Below are positions 22,010 through 34,335 of a stretch of 64,000 nt of DNA, piece after piece. The position numbers were made by a program, and so were the translations under genes. The stretch's first letter is position 1, and the number at the start of each line of letters is the position of its first letter. Source of the stretch: Lentisphaerota bacterium (GTDB lineage: Bacteria; Verrucomicrobiota; Lentisphaeria; Victivallales; Victivallaceae); NCBI GenBank assembly GCA_015061815.1, contig SUVW01000004.1, forward strand, positions 1 through 64,000, read 5' to 3'. The notes beneath the pieces are model-generated. The model saw only the letters and a program-made list of their open reading frames with translations, was not told the origin of the DNA and did no database searches.

Positions 22010-22966
22010 ATGAGCAAATCCCCCTGTGAAATACATTATCTTTCCGCCCTTGATCAGACCATGCAGCCGGCGATGTTCGCTCCGGCAGACGGTGATGCTC
22101 CGCGCCCGCTGATCGTGGCTCTGCACACCTGGAGTTACGATCACACCCAGGAAAGCACACCGTTTTTCATCCGTTGTGCTGAACGCAACTGGCACTGTAT
22201 TTTTCCGAAGTTCCGGGGACCGAACTGGCTGCCGGAAGCCTGCGGTTCAGATCTGGTGGTTTCAGATATCGTCAGTGCGGTGGATTATGTCAAAGCCAAT
22301 TATCCGGTGGATAATGACCGGATTTTTCTGGTCGGCGGTTCCGGCGGCGGTCACGCCTCTCTGCTTCTGGCCTCGCGCCATCCGGAAATCTGGACGGCCG
22401 TATCCTCCTGGTGCCCTATTTCCGATGTTGCCAAATGGCACAGCCAGTGCGCCGCGCTGACCACTGAAAACAGGGTTTATGCCGAACATATCCGGCAGGC
22501 TTGCGGCGGGAATCCGGATGTGGATAAAAAAGCTTTTGATGAGGCGGCAAAACGCTCTTCGATCACCTATCTCAAATCTTCTGCCGGGAAAACCATCGTG
22601 GATATCGGCACCGGCATCCATGACGGACACACCGGCAGCGTGCCGGTTTCCCATACGCTTGAAGCATTCAACGAATTGGCCGCCCCCGGCGATCAGATCA
22701 GCGCGGAAGATATTGACTTCATGGTAAAAAATGAGGCAGTACCCGAACACCTCAAATACACCGGCGAAGATCCGGCATACGGTGAGCGCAAAGTGCTTTT
22801 CCGGCGGGAATCCGGCATGGCCAGAGTCACAATATTTGAAGGCGGCCACGATATCCTTGCCGGACCGGCATTCGGCTTTTTCGAACAGCAGCTTCGCGGG
22901 AAAGAACCGGTCTGGAACAGCGGAGATTCCGCCGATTTCCGGTCCGGCAGTACTCTGGGCAGATGA
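22010..22966 (+). CDS. alpha/beta hydrolase (esterase/prolyl oligopeptidase-like)
   Basis: A 318-residue protein with the nucleophile elbow GGSGGGH (Ser111) and a late GGHDI holding the probable catalytic His280; LIVALHTWS supplies the oxyanion region. This arrangement is found in acetyl-xylan esterases and acyl-peptidase-like enzymes, so deacylation of a sugar or other ester is plausible. No signal peptide is seen. AAAGGATG precedes the ATG by about 6 bp. Its stop overlaps the start of the MlaA fusion gene (ATGA), so the two are translated together. Confidence 0.8.
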   Translation: MSKSPCEIHYLSALDQTMQPAMFAPADGDAPRPLIVALHTWSYDHTQESTPFFIRCAERNWHCIFPKFRGPNWLPEACGSDLVVSDIVSAVDYVKANYPVDNDRIFLVGGSGGGHASLLLASRHPEIWTAVSSWCPISDVAKWHSQCAALTTENRVYAEHIRQACGGNPDVDKKAFDEAAKRSSITYLKSSAGKTIVDIGTGIHDGHTGSVPVSHTLEAFNELAAPGDQISAEDIDFMVKNEAVPEHLKYTGEDPAYGERKVLFRRESGMARVTIFEGGHDILAGPAFGFFEQQLRGKEPVWNSGDSADFRSGSTLGR

Positions 22967-25041
22967 AGCGCACGGTTTTTCTGACAGCAGTTGTACTTCT
23001 CACGCTGATATTCAACGGCTGTCATCACCCTTATGACCGCTTCCCGGAAGAACATCCGGAAGCGTGGACACCCAGCGAGATCGAGTTGATGCTCGGCGGT
23101 GAGGACCCTCTTGAAGGTTTCAACCGTTCGATGTTCAGCTGCACCGACTTTGCGATGAACTACATCGCCGATCCGCTGGGCCGGGTCTACTGTTCCATAT
23201 TCCCCCGGCCTTTCATCACCCATTTTCACAATGTCTGTGTCAATCTGGAATATCCGGCCCGGGCGGTAAGTTCACTGCTGCAGGCCGAATGGCAGGCCGC
23301 CGGTACCGAAACTTTACGTTTCCTGATCAACTCGACGCTTGGTATCGCCGGTATTTTTGACGTGGCGCAATCGTGGTGGTATATTCCTCCGGCGCACGCG
23401 GATTTCGGTCAGGCCTTTGCCCGGTGGGGGATCGGCCCGGGACACACCTTGATCCTGCCGTTTGCGCCCTCTATGAACGGCCGGGATCATCTGGGGCTGC
23501 TCTTTGATACAGCTTTTGATATAAAAACTTACATCCCTTACGCCGGATACGCTACCTTCCTCAACCGGATGACCGTCGCTCACAACGGTTATGTATCAGT
23601 GGTGAACAGTGCCGTTGATCCCTATAAAAACTACCGGCAGATGATGCTGGTAAAGCGGGAACTGGAGTTGCGGATGTGGTTCTATAAAGAGGCGCAAAGA
23701 CAACTCAAAGAGTACCGGGAACAGGCTGAAGCCGCAGAAAAAGATACTCCGACACCGCCGGTTCCGGTATGGACACCGCCGGCACGCCCGGAATATTTGA
23801 AATACGGCCACTATTTTCCGCTGGAAAATTATTTTTCGCAGGGAAACAATACCGACACCATCCGGGTGATGCTTTTCGGAGTACAGCGTGACCGGGATTG
23901 GTGGTATATGCCGCTGTCGGTTTTCAACGGCGACTTTCTCCGGGACGGCTATATGCGTTCGGTGGAGCTGGTTCCCGGGCGGCCGGAACTGCGCTACGGC
24001 TTCTGGAAAGCTCCGGAAACAGAAGCTCCGCCCAATCCGGAAACAAAAGAGAAACTGGTCATCATGCTCTCCGGCATCGGCGGCACGTATATCAATTCCA
24101 CCATGCTCGGCATCGCAGAACAATTCCACAACCGGGGCTGCAAAATACTTACTCTTGACAGTACATTCAACTGGAATTTCATCATCGCCGACGGCGAATG
24201 CCGTCTGCCGGGATATCTGCCGGATGATGCGGCCCGGCTCCGCAAGGCGATTCAGGCAGTTCTGCAGGATTTGAAGGCCCGGGAATGGATAAATACTCCT
24301 GAAATCATCATCTGCGGTTACAGCATGGGCGGCATACAAACATTGAAACTGGCTGAATTGGAAGAACTTTCACCATTGATAGGCGCAAAGCGTTTCATCG
24401 CCGTCAATCCTCCGGTATCATTGGATCATGCAATGAAAAAGATCGACGCGATGGTTGCTTCTTCCGCAGGATGGAGCAAAAGTAAAATGCGGGAAAAACT
24501 GATAACTTCCGCCGGGTGGCTGCTGATAAAACTTGCACCGCACTATCTGCATACCGATGAAAACACCTCACTGGAAGATTACCGGAAATTTATGCTGCCG
24601 CTTGACCCGGAAAGTGCGGAAGTCATCGCGGGGATATATCTTAAAATGTCCATGCGGGAGATGCTTTTTGCCGCCCACCGGGAAACACCGCTGCCCGGAT
24701 TTCCGGAATACAAATGGGGAGATCGTACCGGACTTTATCAGGCACTGGACAAGGTGACATTTCAGGATTATGCCAAAAATCTGCTGACACCGCGTTATCC
24801 GGGGAAAACCACCGGAGAACTGCTGGCGGATTCTGATTTGAGGTCTTTGGAAAAGACCTTGCGCCACAATCCTGATATCCGGGTGTTTCACAATATCGAT
24901 GATTTTCTGGTCAATGATGAAGAGAAAATTTTCCTTGATGAAACGCTTAAAGAACGCATAGTCTGGTTCTCCAACGGCAGCCATCTGGGCAATCTCTACT
25001 ATCAGCAAATACTGGATAAGATCGTCAGTGCGGCCGAATAA
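22963..25041 (+). CDS. MlaA-family lipoprotein fused to an alpha/beta hydrolase
   Basis: A 692-residue lipoprotein with lipobox ending at Cys20 (LIFNGC). Residues about 45-260 form an MlaA/VacJ domain: DPLEGFNRSMF, the repeated ADPLGRVY-type turn, and ADFGQAFARWGIGPG. A Pro-rich linker (about 265-285) leads to a hydrolase domain at about 305-692. Its elbow is GYSMGG (Ser454), with candidate Asp646/647 (IDDF) and His674 (GSHLGN). MlaA normally removes misplaced phospholipid from the outer leaflet of the outer membrane. The fused domain suggests a lipase acting on the extracted lipid. The rest of the Mla system is not in this window. It overlaps the esterase gene by 4 bp. Confidence 0.85.
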   Translation: MKRTVFLTAVVLLTLIFNGCHHPYDRFPEEHPEAWTPSEIELMLGGEDPLEGFNRSMFSCTDFAMNYIADPLGRVYCSIFPRPFITHFHNVCVNLEYPARAVSSLLQAEWQAAGTETLRFLINSTLGIAGIFDVAQSWWYIPPAHADFGQAFARWGIGPGHTLILPFAPSMNGRDHLGLLFDTAFDIKTYIPYAGYATFLNRMTVAHNGYVSVVNSAVDPYKNYRQMMLVKRELELRMWFYKEAQRQLKEYREQAEAAEKDTPTPPVPVWTPPARPEYLKYGHYFPLENYFSQGNNTDTIRVMLFGVQRDRDWWYMPLSVFNGDFLRDGYMRSVELVPGRPELRYGFWKAPETEAPPNPETKEKLVIMLSGIGGTYINSTMLGIAEQFHNRGCKILTLDSTFNWNFIIADGECRLPGYLPDDAARLRKAIQAVLQDLKAREWINTPEIIICGYSMGGIQTLKLAELEELSPLIGAKRFIAVNPPVSLDHAMKKIDAMVASSAGWSKSKMREKLITSAGWLLIKLAPHYLHTDENTSLEDYRKFMLPLDPESAEVIAGIYLKMSMREMLFAAHRETPLPGFPEYKWGDRTGLYQALDKVTFQDYAKNLLTPRYPGKTTGELLADSDLRSLEKTLRHNPDIRVFHNIDDFLVNDEEKIFLDETLKERIVWFSNGSHLGNLYYQQILDKIVSAAE

Positions 25042-27780: not shown

Positions 27781-28719
27781 TCATTCATTATCCACTGACT
27801 TCATTATGGAAGATATATCCGTAAAATTACGCTTGGCGATACTCTCTGAATCATAATAAAAAAACTTTCCGGCCGGAGAACTTATACGGTAACGCCTGCG
27901 GAAACGGCGGGAAGCCAATTTCCAGCCGGCACACTCATCGACCGTAACATATCCGGGCAGAAAATCATTTTTTACCGAATCCAGCGAAGCGATCTTTTCC
28001 AATGCGGCCAGATCGATATAAGATTCTTTCACCTGCTGTTTGAAAACCGGAGAGAGCATCCGGATATATTTCCATGCAAGATGCGCCGAAGTTTCCCGGA
28101 AAAATTCCATATTTTTGCGGGATAAGATTTTTATATCAAACATCTTTATATCATGTTCCGGCACCGGCAGCCGGTATTGGCGAAAGTGTTTTTCCGGCTG
28201 CGGCAGACCGCAGAGGCCCAACGGCATCACCCTCTCTTTTGAATAAAACAGTTTGAGCATATTATCGTCGATACAAAAGATATTTATCACCGGCAGCCGG
28301 GAAACCTGACGGCAGTTCTGCAAATCAGTTTCCGTGATGGTCCCGGCGGTCCCCAGCAGAATTATCTGCCTGACCTGCTGCCGTTTTGCCGCGATTTGAG
28401 CGATGCAATCCAAAACGATCCGGCCGCCGAGCGAATGACCGATAAGGGTGACATCTCCGGTTTCTCCGGCCAGCAGTTTCCCGGAAAATTCCATCACATA
28501 CTTTCCGGCGGCCCGTTTTGCATTCCCCCAGAAACGGTTGCTGTCCCATTTGCATATATGGACAGTCTCTCCGGGGAAAAGTTCCGTCAGAGCCGCCTGA
28601 TGTTTGCGGTAATTTATCCATTGACTGTACCAGCCGGGAATAAAATATACTTCCGCCCGGAGATTTTGAATGCCGGTGAACAACAGCAGCCAGAAAAGAA
28701 CTGTTTTCATTTTCCTCAT
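27781..28719 (-). CDS. secreted alpha/beta hydrolase (lipase-like)
   Basis: A 312-residue protein with an N-terminal signal peptide (cleavage likely after LRA, about residue 22). YFIPGWYSQW is followed by the nucleophile elbow GHSLGGR and a hydrophobic ILLGTAGT strand. It resembles triacylglycerol lipase or PGAP1-like hydrolases, but the substrate is not determinable. The start at 28719 has GGAG 6 bp upstream; a second ATG at 28710 is possible. It lies 3 bp downstream of the SNF2 helicase stop on the same strand and is probably co-transcribed. The glycosyltransferase gene converges on it with a 4-bp gap. Confidence 0.78.
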   Translation of the reverse strand: MRKMKTVLFWLLLFTGIQNLRAEVYFIPGWYSQWINYRKHQAALTELFPGETVHICKWDSNRFWGNAKRAAGKYVMEFSGKLLAGETGDVTLIGHSLGGRIVLDCIAQIAAKRQQVRQIILLGTAGTITETDLQNCRQVSRLPVINIFCIDDNMLKLFYSKERVMPLGLCGLPQPEKHFRQYRLPVPEHDIKMFDIKILSRKNMEFFRETSAHLAWKYIRMLSPVFKQQVKESYIDLAALEKIASLDSVKNDFLPGYVTVDECAGWKLASRRFRRRYRISSPAGKFFYYDSESIAKRNFTDISSIMKSVDNE

Positions 28720-32037: not shown

Positions 32038-34335
32038 ATGAGTTGTTCAGGTGATTTTTGGAATTGCTTTATCAGTTGGCTTGCAGCCTGGTATCCGGCG
32101 GTGATCGGAGTTGTTGTATTTTTAATACTCTGTTCCCCGAAATTGACCTTGAAGATCGCCGCATGGATAGTCCGGCTGGTAATGTTCCGGCTGCGGGTGG
32201 TCGGCAAAGAGAATATGCCGTATTCCGGGCCGATCCTGCTGGTTTCCAACCATGTTTCCCTGATCGACTTACTGATGATCCAGGCGGTGGTCCGGCAGCG
32301 TGTCCGTTTTCTGGTGCGCACCGAGATCGTCAACTTCATTCCGACCCGTCTGATTTTCTGGTATCTGGGCGTACTGCGGGTCCCCAGTGCCCGTCATCCC
32401 AAAGCGATGAAGGCGTTTTTTTCGGATATCCAGGATCGTCTGCGTGCCGGGGAAACCATCTGCTTTTTCCCGGAAGGAGCCATTTCCGGCAGCGGCAATC
32501 TGATGCGCTTCCGTTCCGGAGTACAGTCGCTTATTCCTCCGGAGATCCAGGTGACCGTCATGCCGGTACGTCTGGGCATGGTTCACGGCCGTCTGACCGG
32601 CATCTACAAAAACCGTCTGCACTTCCGCAAACTCACCCGCTGGCCGGTCGATTTTTCGGTAGCCATCGGCCGCCCGGTCGATCCCAATCTGTCTGCCTTC
32701 CAGCTGCGGCAGAAAATTTCTGAACTCGGAGCAATTGCAGAAACTTCACCGCAGCCCGGTGAACGCCCCATCCATACCGCCTTTATCTACCATGCCAAGC
32801 GCCATCTTTTCGGTAAAATATTCTTTGATGCCACTACTGAAAAGTGGGTCGGCAACTTCAAAATGCTGCTGCTGTTGATAATGCTTTCCAAAGTCGTTCG
32901 CAAAATCGACAAAGGCACTTCCGGTTATACCGGTGTACTGCTCCCCAATACTCCCATCGCGGCCGGAGTGATGCTGGCGGTGATGAGTGCCGACCGGACT
33001 CCGGCGGTAATGAACTTCAGTGCCGGACAGGCGGTGGCTTCAGAATCCATGCGCCGTGCGGGAGTAAAAACGATCCTGACCAGCAGAAAATTCATTGAGA
33101 AACTCAAATGGGAAAAGACCGATGAGATGGTTCTGCTGGAAGATATCGTCCCGACCATCAGCAAAAGTCAGAAATTGCTGGCGATGCTCATGGTCCTCTT
33201 TCTGCCGACCCGCACACTGGTGCGGAATATCGCTCCTTTGAGCTGCTACAACATGTTCCAGCAGGCCGCGCTGCTCTTTTCCAGCGGTTCGACCGGAAAA
33301 CCCAAAGCGGTCATGCTCACCCAGCGCAATATCAACTGTGACATCCAGAGCTTCCTCCGGGTGGTCGACTGGTCGACAAATGACCGGGTAGCCGGCAACC
33401 TGCCGGTTTTTCACTCTTTCGGCTTTACCGTCTGCTTTGCTCTTCCGGCGATCAGCGGTACTCCGGTAACTTATGTCGCCAATCCGCTGGATGCTTCACT
33501 TATTGTAAAGACCTGCCGGGAATTCCGGGTATCCATTCTCTGCGCGACCCCGACATTCCTGCAGAAATATATGATGAAAGCCCATCCGGAAGACTTCAAA
33601 AGTCTGCGGCTCTGCGTCACCGGTGCCGAAAAGTTGCGTACCGAATTGGCTGAACGTTACCGCAACATGACCGGACGGGATATCGTTGAGGGCTTCGGCT
33701 GTACCGAATTGTCCCCGATCGTGACCATCAATTTGAATAACTCCATTTACACTCTGGGAACCAAGAGCGATCATCCCGGAAGTATCGGCTGTCCGCTGCC
33801 GGGTATCCATGCCCGCATCGTGGATATCGATACCGGCGTGGAACTGCCCCCCGGACAGGACGGCAGACTGCAGGTGCGCGCCGGAACTGTGATGAAAGGT
33901 TATCTCAATGAACCGGAACTCACTGCTCAAGTCATCCAGAACAACTACTACGATACCGGAGATATCGGCCACATGGATGAAGATGGTTACATCTACATCA
34001 CCGGGCGCGCCAGCCGGTTCAGCAAGATCGGCGGCGAAATGGTTCCGCATGAGGGCGTGGAAGATGCCATTACCAAGATCCTCCATTCGGAAAACCGTGA
34101 AATCGCCGTCGCCGGACGCAGTGACCGGCTCAAAGGTGAAAGACTGGTCATATTCTATACTACGGAAAATATGGATATTGCCGGCATCATCGCCGGTTTG
34201 CGGGAAGCCGGTCTGCCCAACATCTGGATACCCAAAGCCGATGATTTTATCAAAGTCGACCAGCTGCCGCTTCTCGGCAGCGGAAAACTTGACCTGCTGG
34301 GCCTGAAAAAAATGGTTCAGGCACTGGAAAAATAA
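32038..34335 (+). CDS. aas: bifunctional acyltransferase/acyl-ACP synthetase (Aas-like)
   Basis: A 765-residue membrane-associated protein. After a hydrophobic N-terminus, an acyltransferase domain at about 55-240 has NHVSLID (the HX4D catalytic box) and FPEGAISGSG. An AMP-binding acyl synthetase domain at about 290-765 has LLFSSGSTGKPKAVMLT, GFGCTELSPI and YDTGDIGHMDEDGYIYITGR. E. coli Aas reacylates lyso-phosphatidylethanolamine at the inner membrane, and length and domain order match. The start at 32038 has AAGGGA about 10 bp upstream. Phospholipid recycling would complement the MlaA-hydrolase fusion at 22963. RecQ follows after 53 bp. Confidence 0.88.
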   Translation: MSCSGDFWNCFISWLAAWYPAVIGVVVFLILCSPKLTLKIAAWIVRLVMFRLRVVGKENMPYSGPILLVSNHVSLIDLLMIQAVVRQRVRFLVRTEIVNFIPTRLIFWYLGVLRVPSARHPKAMKAFFSDIQDRLRAGETICFFPEGAISGSGNLMRFRSGVQSLIPPEIQVTVMPVRLGMVHGRLTGIYKNRLHFRKLTRWPVDFSVAIGRPVDPNLSAFQLRQKISELGAIAETSPQPGERPIHTAFIYHAKRHLFGKIFFDATTEKWVGNFKMLLLLIMLSKVVRKIDKGTSGYTGVLLPNTPIAAGVMLAVMSADRTPAVMNFSAGQAVASESMRRAGVKTILTSRKFIEKLKWEKTDEMVLLEDIVPTISKSQKLLAMLMVLFLPTRTLVRNIAPLSCYNMFQQAALLFSSGSTGKPKAVMLTQRNINCDIQSFLRVVDWSTNDRVAGNLPVFHSFGFTVCFALPAISGTPVTYVANPLDASLIVKTCREFRVSILCATPTFLQKYMMKAHPEDFKSLRLCVTGAEKLRTELAERYRNMTGRDIVEGFGCTELSPIVTINLNNSIYTLGTKSDHPGSIGCPLPGIHARIVDIDTGVELPPGQDGRLQVRAGTVMKGYLNEPELTAQVIQNNYYDTGDIGHMDEDGYIYITGRASRFSKIGGEMVPHEGVEDAITKILHSENREIAVAGRSDRLKGERLVIFYTTENMDIAGIIAGLREAGLPNIWIPKADDFIKVDQLPLLGSGKLDLLGLKKMVQALEK

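What the first reader, a model, noticed from the sequence alone, without database searches (positions are those of the whole stretch)
22963..25041. MlaA lipoprotein fused to a serine hydrolase
The N-terminal half is a recognisable MlaA domain with a lipobox. The C-terminal half has GYSMGG (Ser454), Asp646/647 and His674 in the order of an alpha/beta-hydrolase triad. MlaA normally only extracts phospholipid and passes it on. A fused lipase would degrade the lipid at the outer membrane, combining the MlaA and PldA functions. An Aas-like reacylation enzyme lies 7 kb away and could recycle the lyso product.
Basis: partly seen in the sequence, partly recalled or inferred. Interest (0 to 1): 0.72.

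Follow-up and report, generated by a model that had tools for sequence, protein, structure and literature searches.

The report
MlaA lipoprotein fused to MlaY-like lipase
A probable gut bacterium carries, in one protein, the part that pulls misplaced phospholipids out of the outer membrane and a part that probably cuts them up; many related bacteria do the same, apparently in place of the usual return-transport system.

Summary
The ORF is real: 692 aa, an MlaA domain (PF04333, E 4e-43) followed by an alpha/beta-hydrolase domain with Ser454-Asp647-His674. So this is MlaZ and MlaY in one polypeptide. It is no one-off. Of 387 Verrucomicrobiota genomes, 153 have MlaA: 45 also have MlaC (1 of them MlaY too); 108 lack MlaC, and 105 of these have MlaY (94 fused, 10 as adjacent genes, 1 cut by a contig end). 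Of 84 hydrolase rows all but the 2 cut by contig ends keep the triad. The window's genome has LpxC but no detectable MlaC, MCE domain, MlaE or PldA. Best reading: phospholipid is taken from the outer leaflet and hydrolysed on the spot, replacing MlaC-dependent return. The lipase activity is inferred. The Aas link is not specific: Aas-like proteins are in 31 of 32 genomes tested, and not near MlaY in the other MlaY genomes compared. New variant of a known kind.

The parts
22963..25041 (+). fused mlaZ-mlaY gene (MlaA-family domain + MlaY-family hydrolase), 692 aa
   Evidence: same fusion in 94 of 387 genomes
22963..23022 (+). signal peptide ending in the probable lipobox FNG-Cys20
   Evidence: Cys20 invariant in 5 of 5 nearest sequences; lipoprotein status inferred
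23101..23661 (+). MlaA domain (residues 47-233)
   Evidence: PF04333 E 4e-43; PDB MlaA chains E 4e-14 to 6e-13
23734..23817 (+). Pro-rich linker (about residues 258-285), varying in length among relatives
   Evidence: alignment
23986..25038 (+). MlaY-like alpha/beta-hydrolase domain (about residues 342-692)
24322..24324 (+). nucleophile Ser454 in G-Y-S-M-G
   Evidence: 83 of 84 rows, the miss cut by a contig end; equals MlaY Ser187
24901..24903 (+). catalytic acid Asp647
   Evidence: 82 of 84 rows, 2 cut by contig ends; equals MlaY Asp388
24982..24984 (+). catalytic His674 in G-S-H-L-G
   Evidence: 82 of 84 rows, 2 cut by contig ends; equals MlaY His415
22010..22966 (+). upstream esterase-like gene whose stop overlaps the fusion's ATG (4 bases shared); likely same transcript, not a conserved part of the system
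   Evidence: found upstream in some close congeners only; not an MlaY homologue

Best explanation
The protein is MlaZ and MlaY joined in one outer-membrane-associated polypeptide. The MlaA domain takes glycerophospholipid that has strayed into the outer leaflet and delivers it through its channel to the periplasmic face, where, instead of MlaC, the tethered Ser-Asp-His hydrolase cuts the acyl ester(s). The products are then reused by general lipid metabolism. In the genomes that carry it, it stands in for MlaC-dependent retrograde transport; in the window's own subclade no other known remover was found. Shown here: the domain fusion, MlaY homology, the conserved triad, the distribution against MlaC. 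Inferred: substrate, direction, membrane location and products.
For: MlaA domain. Hydrolase homologous to MlaY: profile 236 bits, E 3.4e-69 at a nominal database of 100,000, while two unrelated alpha/beta-hydrolases of the same window gave no hit. The triad aligns with the reported MlaY residues Ser187, Asp388, His415. Kept in all untruncated rows of 84. Genome counts: 45 genomes with MlaA and MlaC, MlaY in 1; 108 with MlaA but no MlaC, MlaY in 105. By family of MlaA genomes: 21 with MlaC, 13 with MlaY, 2 with both, 1 with neither. The hydrolase was not found in the 24 MlaA-lacking genomes given, apart from one weak general hit (G058, 18 bits). In E. coli MlaC docks on the C-terminal helices of MlaA (PMC10719372, passages), the end from which the hydrolase is hung here. 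LpxC is present, so lipid A is likely made and there is an asymmetry to keep.
Against: No activity data for this protein; MlaY's activity is known to me from passages in other papers and the recalled abstract of Guest et al. 2023, which is not held. The hydrolase model is of middling confidence (mean pLDDT 64.4); the stretch with His674 (model residues 363-369) is under 50, and triad distances could not be measured; the full-length model failed (44.7). No close solved relative was found (best profile E 0.0027). LolA was not detected in this genome, so lipoprotein sorting is unproven. Genomes are related, so the Fisher value overstates independence; on the MlaA tree the MlaY/MlaC label needs only 2 changes. 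Three MlaC-less MlaA genomes show no MlaY, and most MlaY genomes do keep an MCE protein.
Confidence: 0.8

Rival explanations
1. The hydrolase is an acyltransferase: it takes an acyl chain from the extracted phospholipid and moves it to lipid A, a lipoprotein or another acceptor, as PagP does with another fold.
For: Alpha/beta-hydrolase triads also serve acyl transfer (general knowledge); a large helical insertion (model residues about 178-326) could hold an acceptor.
Against: The nearest characterised relative, MlaY, is described as a lipase (passages).
Confidence: 0.1
2. It is a nutrient system: it captures and digests lipids from outside (rumen or gut phospholipid or galactolipid) rather than keeping the outer membrane asymmetric.
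For: The nearest named record is a MAG titled Yak_Colon; an esterase gene overlaps it upstream.
Against: The anticorrelation with MlaC points to a task shared with canonical Mla; the esterase is found beside it only in some close congeners.
Confidence: 0.07
3. The hydrolase domain is a catalytically dead scaffold or regulator.
For: None found.
Against: Ser, Asp and His kept in every untruncated row of 84.
Confidence: 0.02
4. The fusion is an assembly or frameshift artefact.
For: The window lies in a draft assembly of 44 contigs.
Against: Both domains in one open frame in 94 genomes and in 4 named MAG records, two of which are the same genes as in G141 and G094.
Confidence: 0.01

Closest known systems
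MlaYZ of Pseudomonas aeruginosa (PA3238/PA3239; Guest et al. 2023, recalled)
   Same: MlaA-family protein plus homologous alpha/beta-hydrolase, same triad residues; proposed to extract and degrade misplaced phospholipid (passages)
   Different: two genes, hydrolase gene first, beside a canonical MlaA/MlaC system in P. aeruginosa; here one polypeptide, MlaA domain first, and no MlaC found in the genome
Canonical Mla system (MlaA-MlaC-MlaBDEF)
   Same: MlaA domain
   Different: no MlaC, MCE or MlaE found in this genome
PldA (outer membrane phospholipase A)
   Same: same proposed task, removal of outer-leaflet phospholipid by hydrolysis
   Different: PldA is an unrelated beta-barrel enzyme (recalled); PF02253 in 0 of 32 genomes
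MlaEFD with long MlaD of Veillonella and many diderms (PMC10665443, passages)
   Same: another way to do without MlaC
   Different: a transenvelope bridge without MlaA; here MlaA is kept and joined to an enzyme

Membership tests
MlaYZ | MlaA-family extractor | tested here: met
   PF04333 E 4e-43; blastp to MlaZ of L125 E 5e-13
MlaYZ | hydrolase homologous to MlaY over the whole domain | tested here: met
   profile 236 bits, MlaY residues 86-432
MlaYZ | triad at MlaY Ser187, Asp388, His415 | tested here: met
MlaYZ | two separate adjacent genes (organisation, not function) | tested here: not met
   one ORF in the window; adjacent genes in 10 relatives
MlaYZ | degrades phospholipid at the outer membrane | not testable with these tools
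   no biochemistry here
canonical Mla | MlaC carrier | tested here: not met
   PF05494: 47 of 387 genomes, none of them G000 or of its genus, family or order
canonical Mla | MlaD (MCE) and MlaE | tested here: not met
   no match in G000; MCE is present in 94 of the 105 MlaC-less MlaY genomes
PldA | PF02253 beta-barrel | tested here: not met
   P0001 has no PF02253 match; 0 of 32 genomes
alpha/beta-hydrolase fold | strand order, nucleophile elbow, acid and His after later strands | tested here: met
outer membrane lipoprotein | lipobox Cys and Lol sorting | tested here: inconclusive
   Cys20 present; LolA PF03548 not found in G000, found in 4 of 20 genomes

The most novel reading that the evidence does not exclude
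Across Lentisphaeria the on-site degradation of stray phospholipid by a tethered MlaZ-MlaY enzyme is the standard way to keep the outer membrane asymmetric, replacing retrograde transport by MlaC; in the window's subclade, which has LpxC but no detectable MlaC, MCE, MlaE, PldA or TamB, it is the only such system, so lipid leaves the outer leaflet only by being destroyed.
Probability: 0.45. Interest if true: 0.68.

Novelty: new variant of a known kind. Interest (0 to 1): 0.55.

Why it matters
MlaA without MlaC has looked like an incomplete system. The near-exclusive split between MlaA+MlaC and MlaA+MlaY genomes in one phylum suggests that MlaA is a general extractor with exchangeable outlets, return or destruction. 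The fusion is also independent 'Rosetta stone' support for MlaZ handing lipid straight to MlaY, and gives one polypeptide in which the hand-over could be studied, with a clean test (S454A) of whether degradation alone can hold outer membrane asymmetry.

Tried and rejected
Full-length structure prediction with the 5 sequences allowed gave mean pLDDT 44.7 and was not used; the hydrolase half alone gave 64.4 and was used for topology only. Foldseek's superpositions had large rmsd; VIA-align was used instead. A profile search of solved chains found no close relative (best E 0.0027), and Pfam places the 30 aligned members only in general hydrolase models (best E 6e-6). I tested whether MlaC-linked MlaAs here carry the acidic MlaC-recruiting tail of E. 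coli MlaA while MlaY-linked ones lack it: uninformative, since most MlaC-linked ones also end without it. The Aas neighbour as a dedicated recycler: rejected as non-specific. Phage or viral origin: no relative in viral contigs (patterns of one protein) or phages. Conserved neighbours: of 19 flanking proteins scanned in 7 loci no family recurred except RND-type transporters in two (L123, L104). Paper searches for a printed MlaA-lipase fusion: 20 of 362 papers listed; 14 of 14; 15 of 170; 20 of 553; 8 of 8; 3 of 3; 12 of 18; 1 of 1; 6 of 6; no title or abstract start that I saw reports one. I looked at passages of PMC10665443, PMC11977310, PMC11756786, PMC11131202, PMC10925693, PMC12569750, PMC10719372 and PMC10474453 only. 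Guest et al. 2023 is not held and may mention fused homologues.

Full report
What is there. The ORF at 22963-25041 (+) encodes 692 aa. Residues 47-233 are an MlaA domain (PF04333, E 4e-43; solved MlaA chains match at E 4e-14 to 6e-13); the NCBIfam equivalog for MlaA matches far below its cut-off (63.9 of 375 bits). Pfam's general hydrolase models match the second half only weakly (E 0.0011, below cut-off). The ATG shares four bases with the end of an esterase-like gene.

It is a family. The named relatives found are MAGs of Lentisphaeria (4 loci, best-segment identity 59-81%). In a sample of 387 Verrucomicrobiota genomes P0001 matches 153, the same number that PF04333 finds. I fetched stretches around part of these and found the two domains in one open frame in most, and in two adjacent genes, mlaA first, in ten (L036-L045). 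Among 84 hydrolase rows (three duplicate loci left out; one duplicate, L022/L089, left in) Ser454 is kept in 83, Asp647 in 82 and His674 in 82; the misses are the two rows cut by contig ends, L046 and L070.

What the hydrolase is. P. aeruginosa has a two-gene system, MlaZ (an MlaA homologue) and MlaY (a lipase), proposed to take misplaced glycerophospholipid from the outer leaflet and degrade it. I know the original paper (Guest et al. 2023) from recall; it is not held. I saw passages on it in PMC11977310, PMC11131202, PMC10925693, PMC12569750 and PMC10474453. A plasmid record (L125) carries the pair amid genes in the order symporter, DUF485, betaine-binding protein, DUF2061, hydrolase, VacJ, pirin, patatin, lauroyl acyltransferase; that this is the PA3234-PA3242 order is recalled. 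Its 453-aa hydrolase has Ser187, Asp388 and His415 in the expected motifs, exactly the residues quoted for MlaY. A profile built from the Verrucomicrobiota hydrolases finds this MlaY with 236 bits and the Fusobacterium and Skermanella homologues with 191-226 bits; the two other alpha/beta-hydrolases of the window that I tested give nothing. In all 6 plasmid-collection records with an MlaY homologue an MlaA match lies beside it (for two of the P. aeruginosa records alone). In the 30-row alignment the Fusobacterium row has Glu in the column of the catalytic Asp, next to an Asp.

Distribution against MlaC. Tallied: of 153 genomes with MlaA, 45 have MlaC and 108 do not. MlaY is in 1 of the 45 (G172, which has a canonical mlaA-mlaC locus and a separate fusion) and in 105 of the 108 (94 fused, 10 split, 1 cut, G361). 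Two further MlaC hits (G155, and G360 below cut-off) are in genomes without MlaA. The three exceptions: G308, whose MlaA groups with MlaC-linked ones; G268, whose MlaA runs into a contig end and groups with fused relatives; and G271, whose MlaA is directly followed by an MMPL/RND transporter gene. By family of the MlaA genomes, 21 have MlaC, 13 MlaY, 2 both, 1 neither. Fisher's p is 1e-33, but the genomes are related, so the family counts are the fairer figure. For genomes not fetched as loci, fusion was read from one match over most of the query, or two matches in frames of one length, and from the open-frame lengths. The hydrolase profile gave no strong hit in the 24 MlaA-lacking genomes given to it or in the other 44 MlaC genomes; five weak hits of 18-23 bits (G039, G190, G098, G058, G004) look general. 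That call held 76 of the 387 genomes, so orphan MlaYs elsewhere are not excluded by it, though P0001 itself matched no genome without MlaA.

The window's genome. LpxC is present, but no MlaC, MCE domain, MlaE, PldA or TamB was found at 94% completeness. The lack of MCE and MlaE is shared by the congeners G031, G094, G141, G161, G197 and G255, so it is not a gap in one assembly; in all, 11 of the 105 MlaY genomes lack an MCE hit and 94 have one or more. So for most of the family the claim is only that MlaC is replaced. Pfam models can miss diverged proteins: TamB was absent in 20 of 20 and LolA in 16 of 20 genomes, so these absences are weaker evidence.

Evolution. On the hydrolase tree (86 rows) the Verrucomicrobiota rows form one side of a branch (100) against the proteobacterial and fusobacterial MlaYs; fused and split need two changes, so either two fusions or one fusion and one fission. 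The MlaA tree (106 rows, near copies left out, root uncertain) keeps two fused groups apart from each other and from MlaC-linked MlaAs: one of the window's order, one of families f10, f11, f14, f19 and f22.

Mechanism. In E. coli MlaC docks at the C-terminal helices of MlaA (PMC10719372, passages). Here the hydrolase is hung on just that end by a Pro-rich linker. The simplest reading is that the enzyme takes the place of MlaC and hydrolyses what MlaA delivers. In P. aeruginosa the membrane anchor appears to be on MlaY; in the fusion one N-terminal lipobox could serve both halves. Recycling can be done by general Aas-like enzymes, present in 31 of 32 genomes with or without MlaY; in the 25 other MlaY genomes with a match the best one is on another contig or over 60 kb away. 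The short distance in the window is shared by L002 but by no other locus read, though several of those stretches end short of that distance.

Novelty. PMC10665443 (passages) surveyed Mla parts in 1083 genomes and treats MlaABC as mostly proteobacterial; the words 'fused' and 'hydrolase' do not occur in its main text. Searches listed in Tried and rejected showed no report of the fusion. I rate it a new variant of MlaYZ, with the phylum-wide exchange of MlaC for MlaY as the more interesting part.

Noticed in passing
L104:5138-8360 (G271): A standalone MlaA gene is directly followed by an 828-aa open frame with an MMPL/RND transporter; MlaC and MlaY were not found in this genome, so it may be a third kind of MlaA outlet.
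   Followed up: partly
L123, L124 (Skermanella plasmids): The mlaY-mlaZ pair lies in a row with an RND permease, a small unknown protein and a TamB-domain protein.
   Followed up: partly
G022, G034, G064, G089, G373: In five congeners neither MlaA nor MlaY was found; four keep MlaE and MCE, in G373 these were not found either.
   Followed up: partly
L075 (G332, family f39): A fused copy in a distant family groups with sequences of the window's order on both trees: horizontal transfer or a contaminating contig.
   Followed up: no
L048/L049 (G114), L050/L051 (G226), L055 (G266): Some genomes hold two diverged fused copies.
   Followed up: no
20 genomes: TamB was found in 0 of 20 and LolA in 4 of 20 genomes of this group by Pfam models; either diverged proteins or an unusual envelope.
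   Followed up: no
window 27781-28719 (-): Another alpha/beta-hydrolase (DUF726-like, GHSLGG motif, by eye with a signal peptide) downstream; no hit by the MlaY-family profile.
   Followed up: partly
window 32038-34335 (+): Aas-like protein with acyltransferase and AMP-binding domains; a paralogue in a longer open frame (1183 aa) lies elsewhere in the genome (G000:C13).
   Followed up: partly
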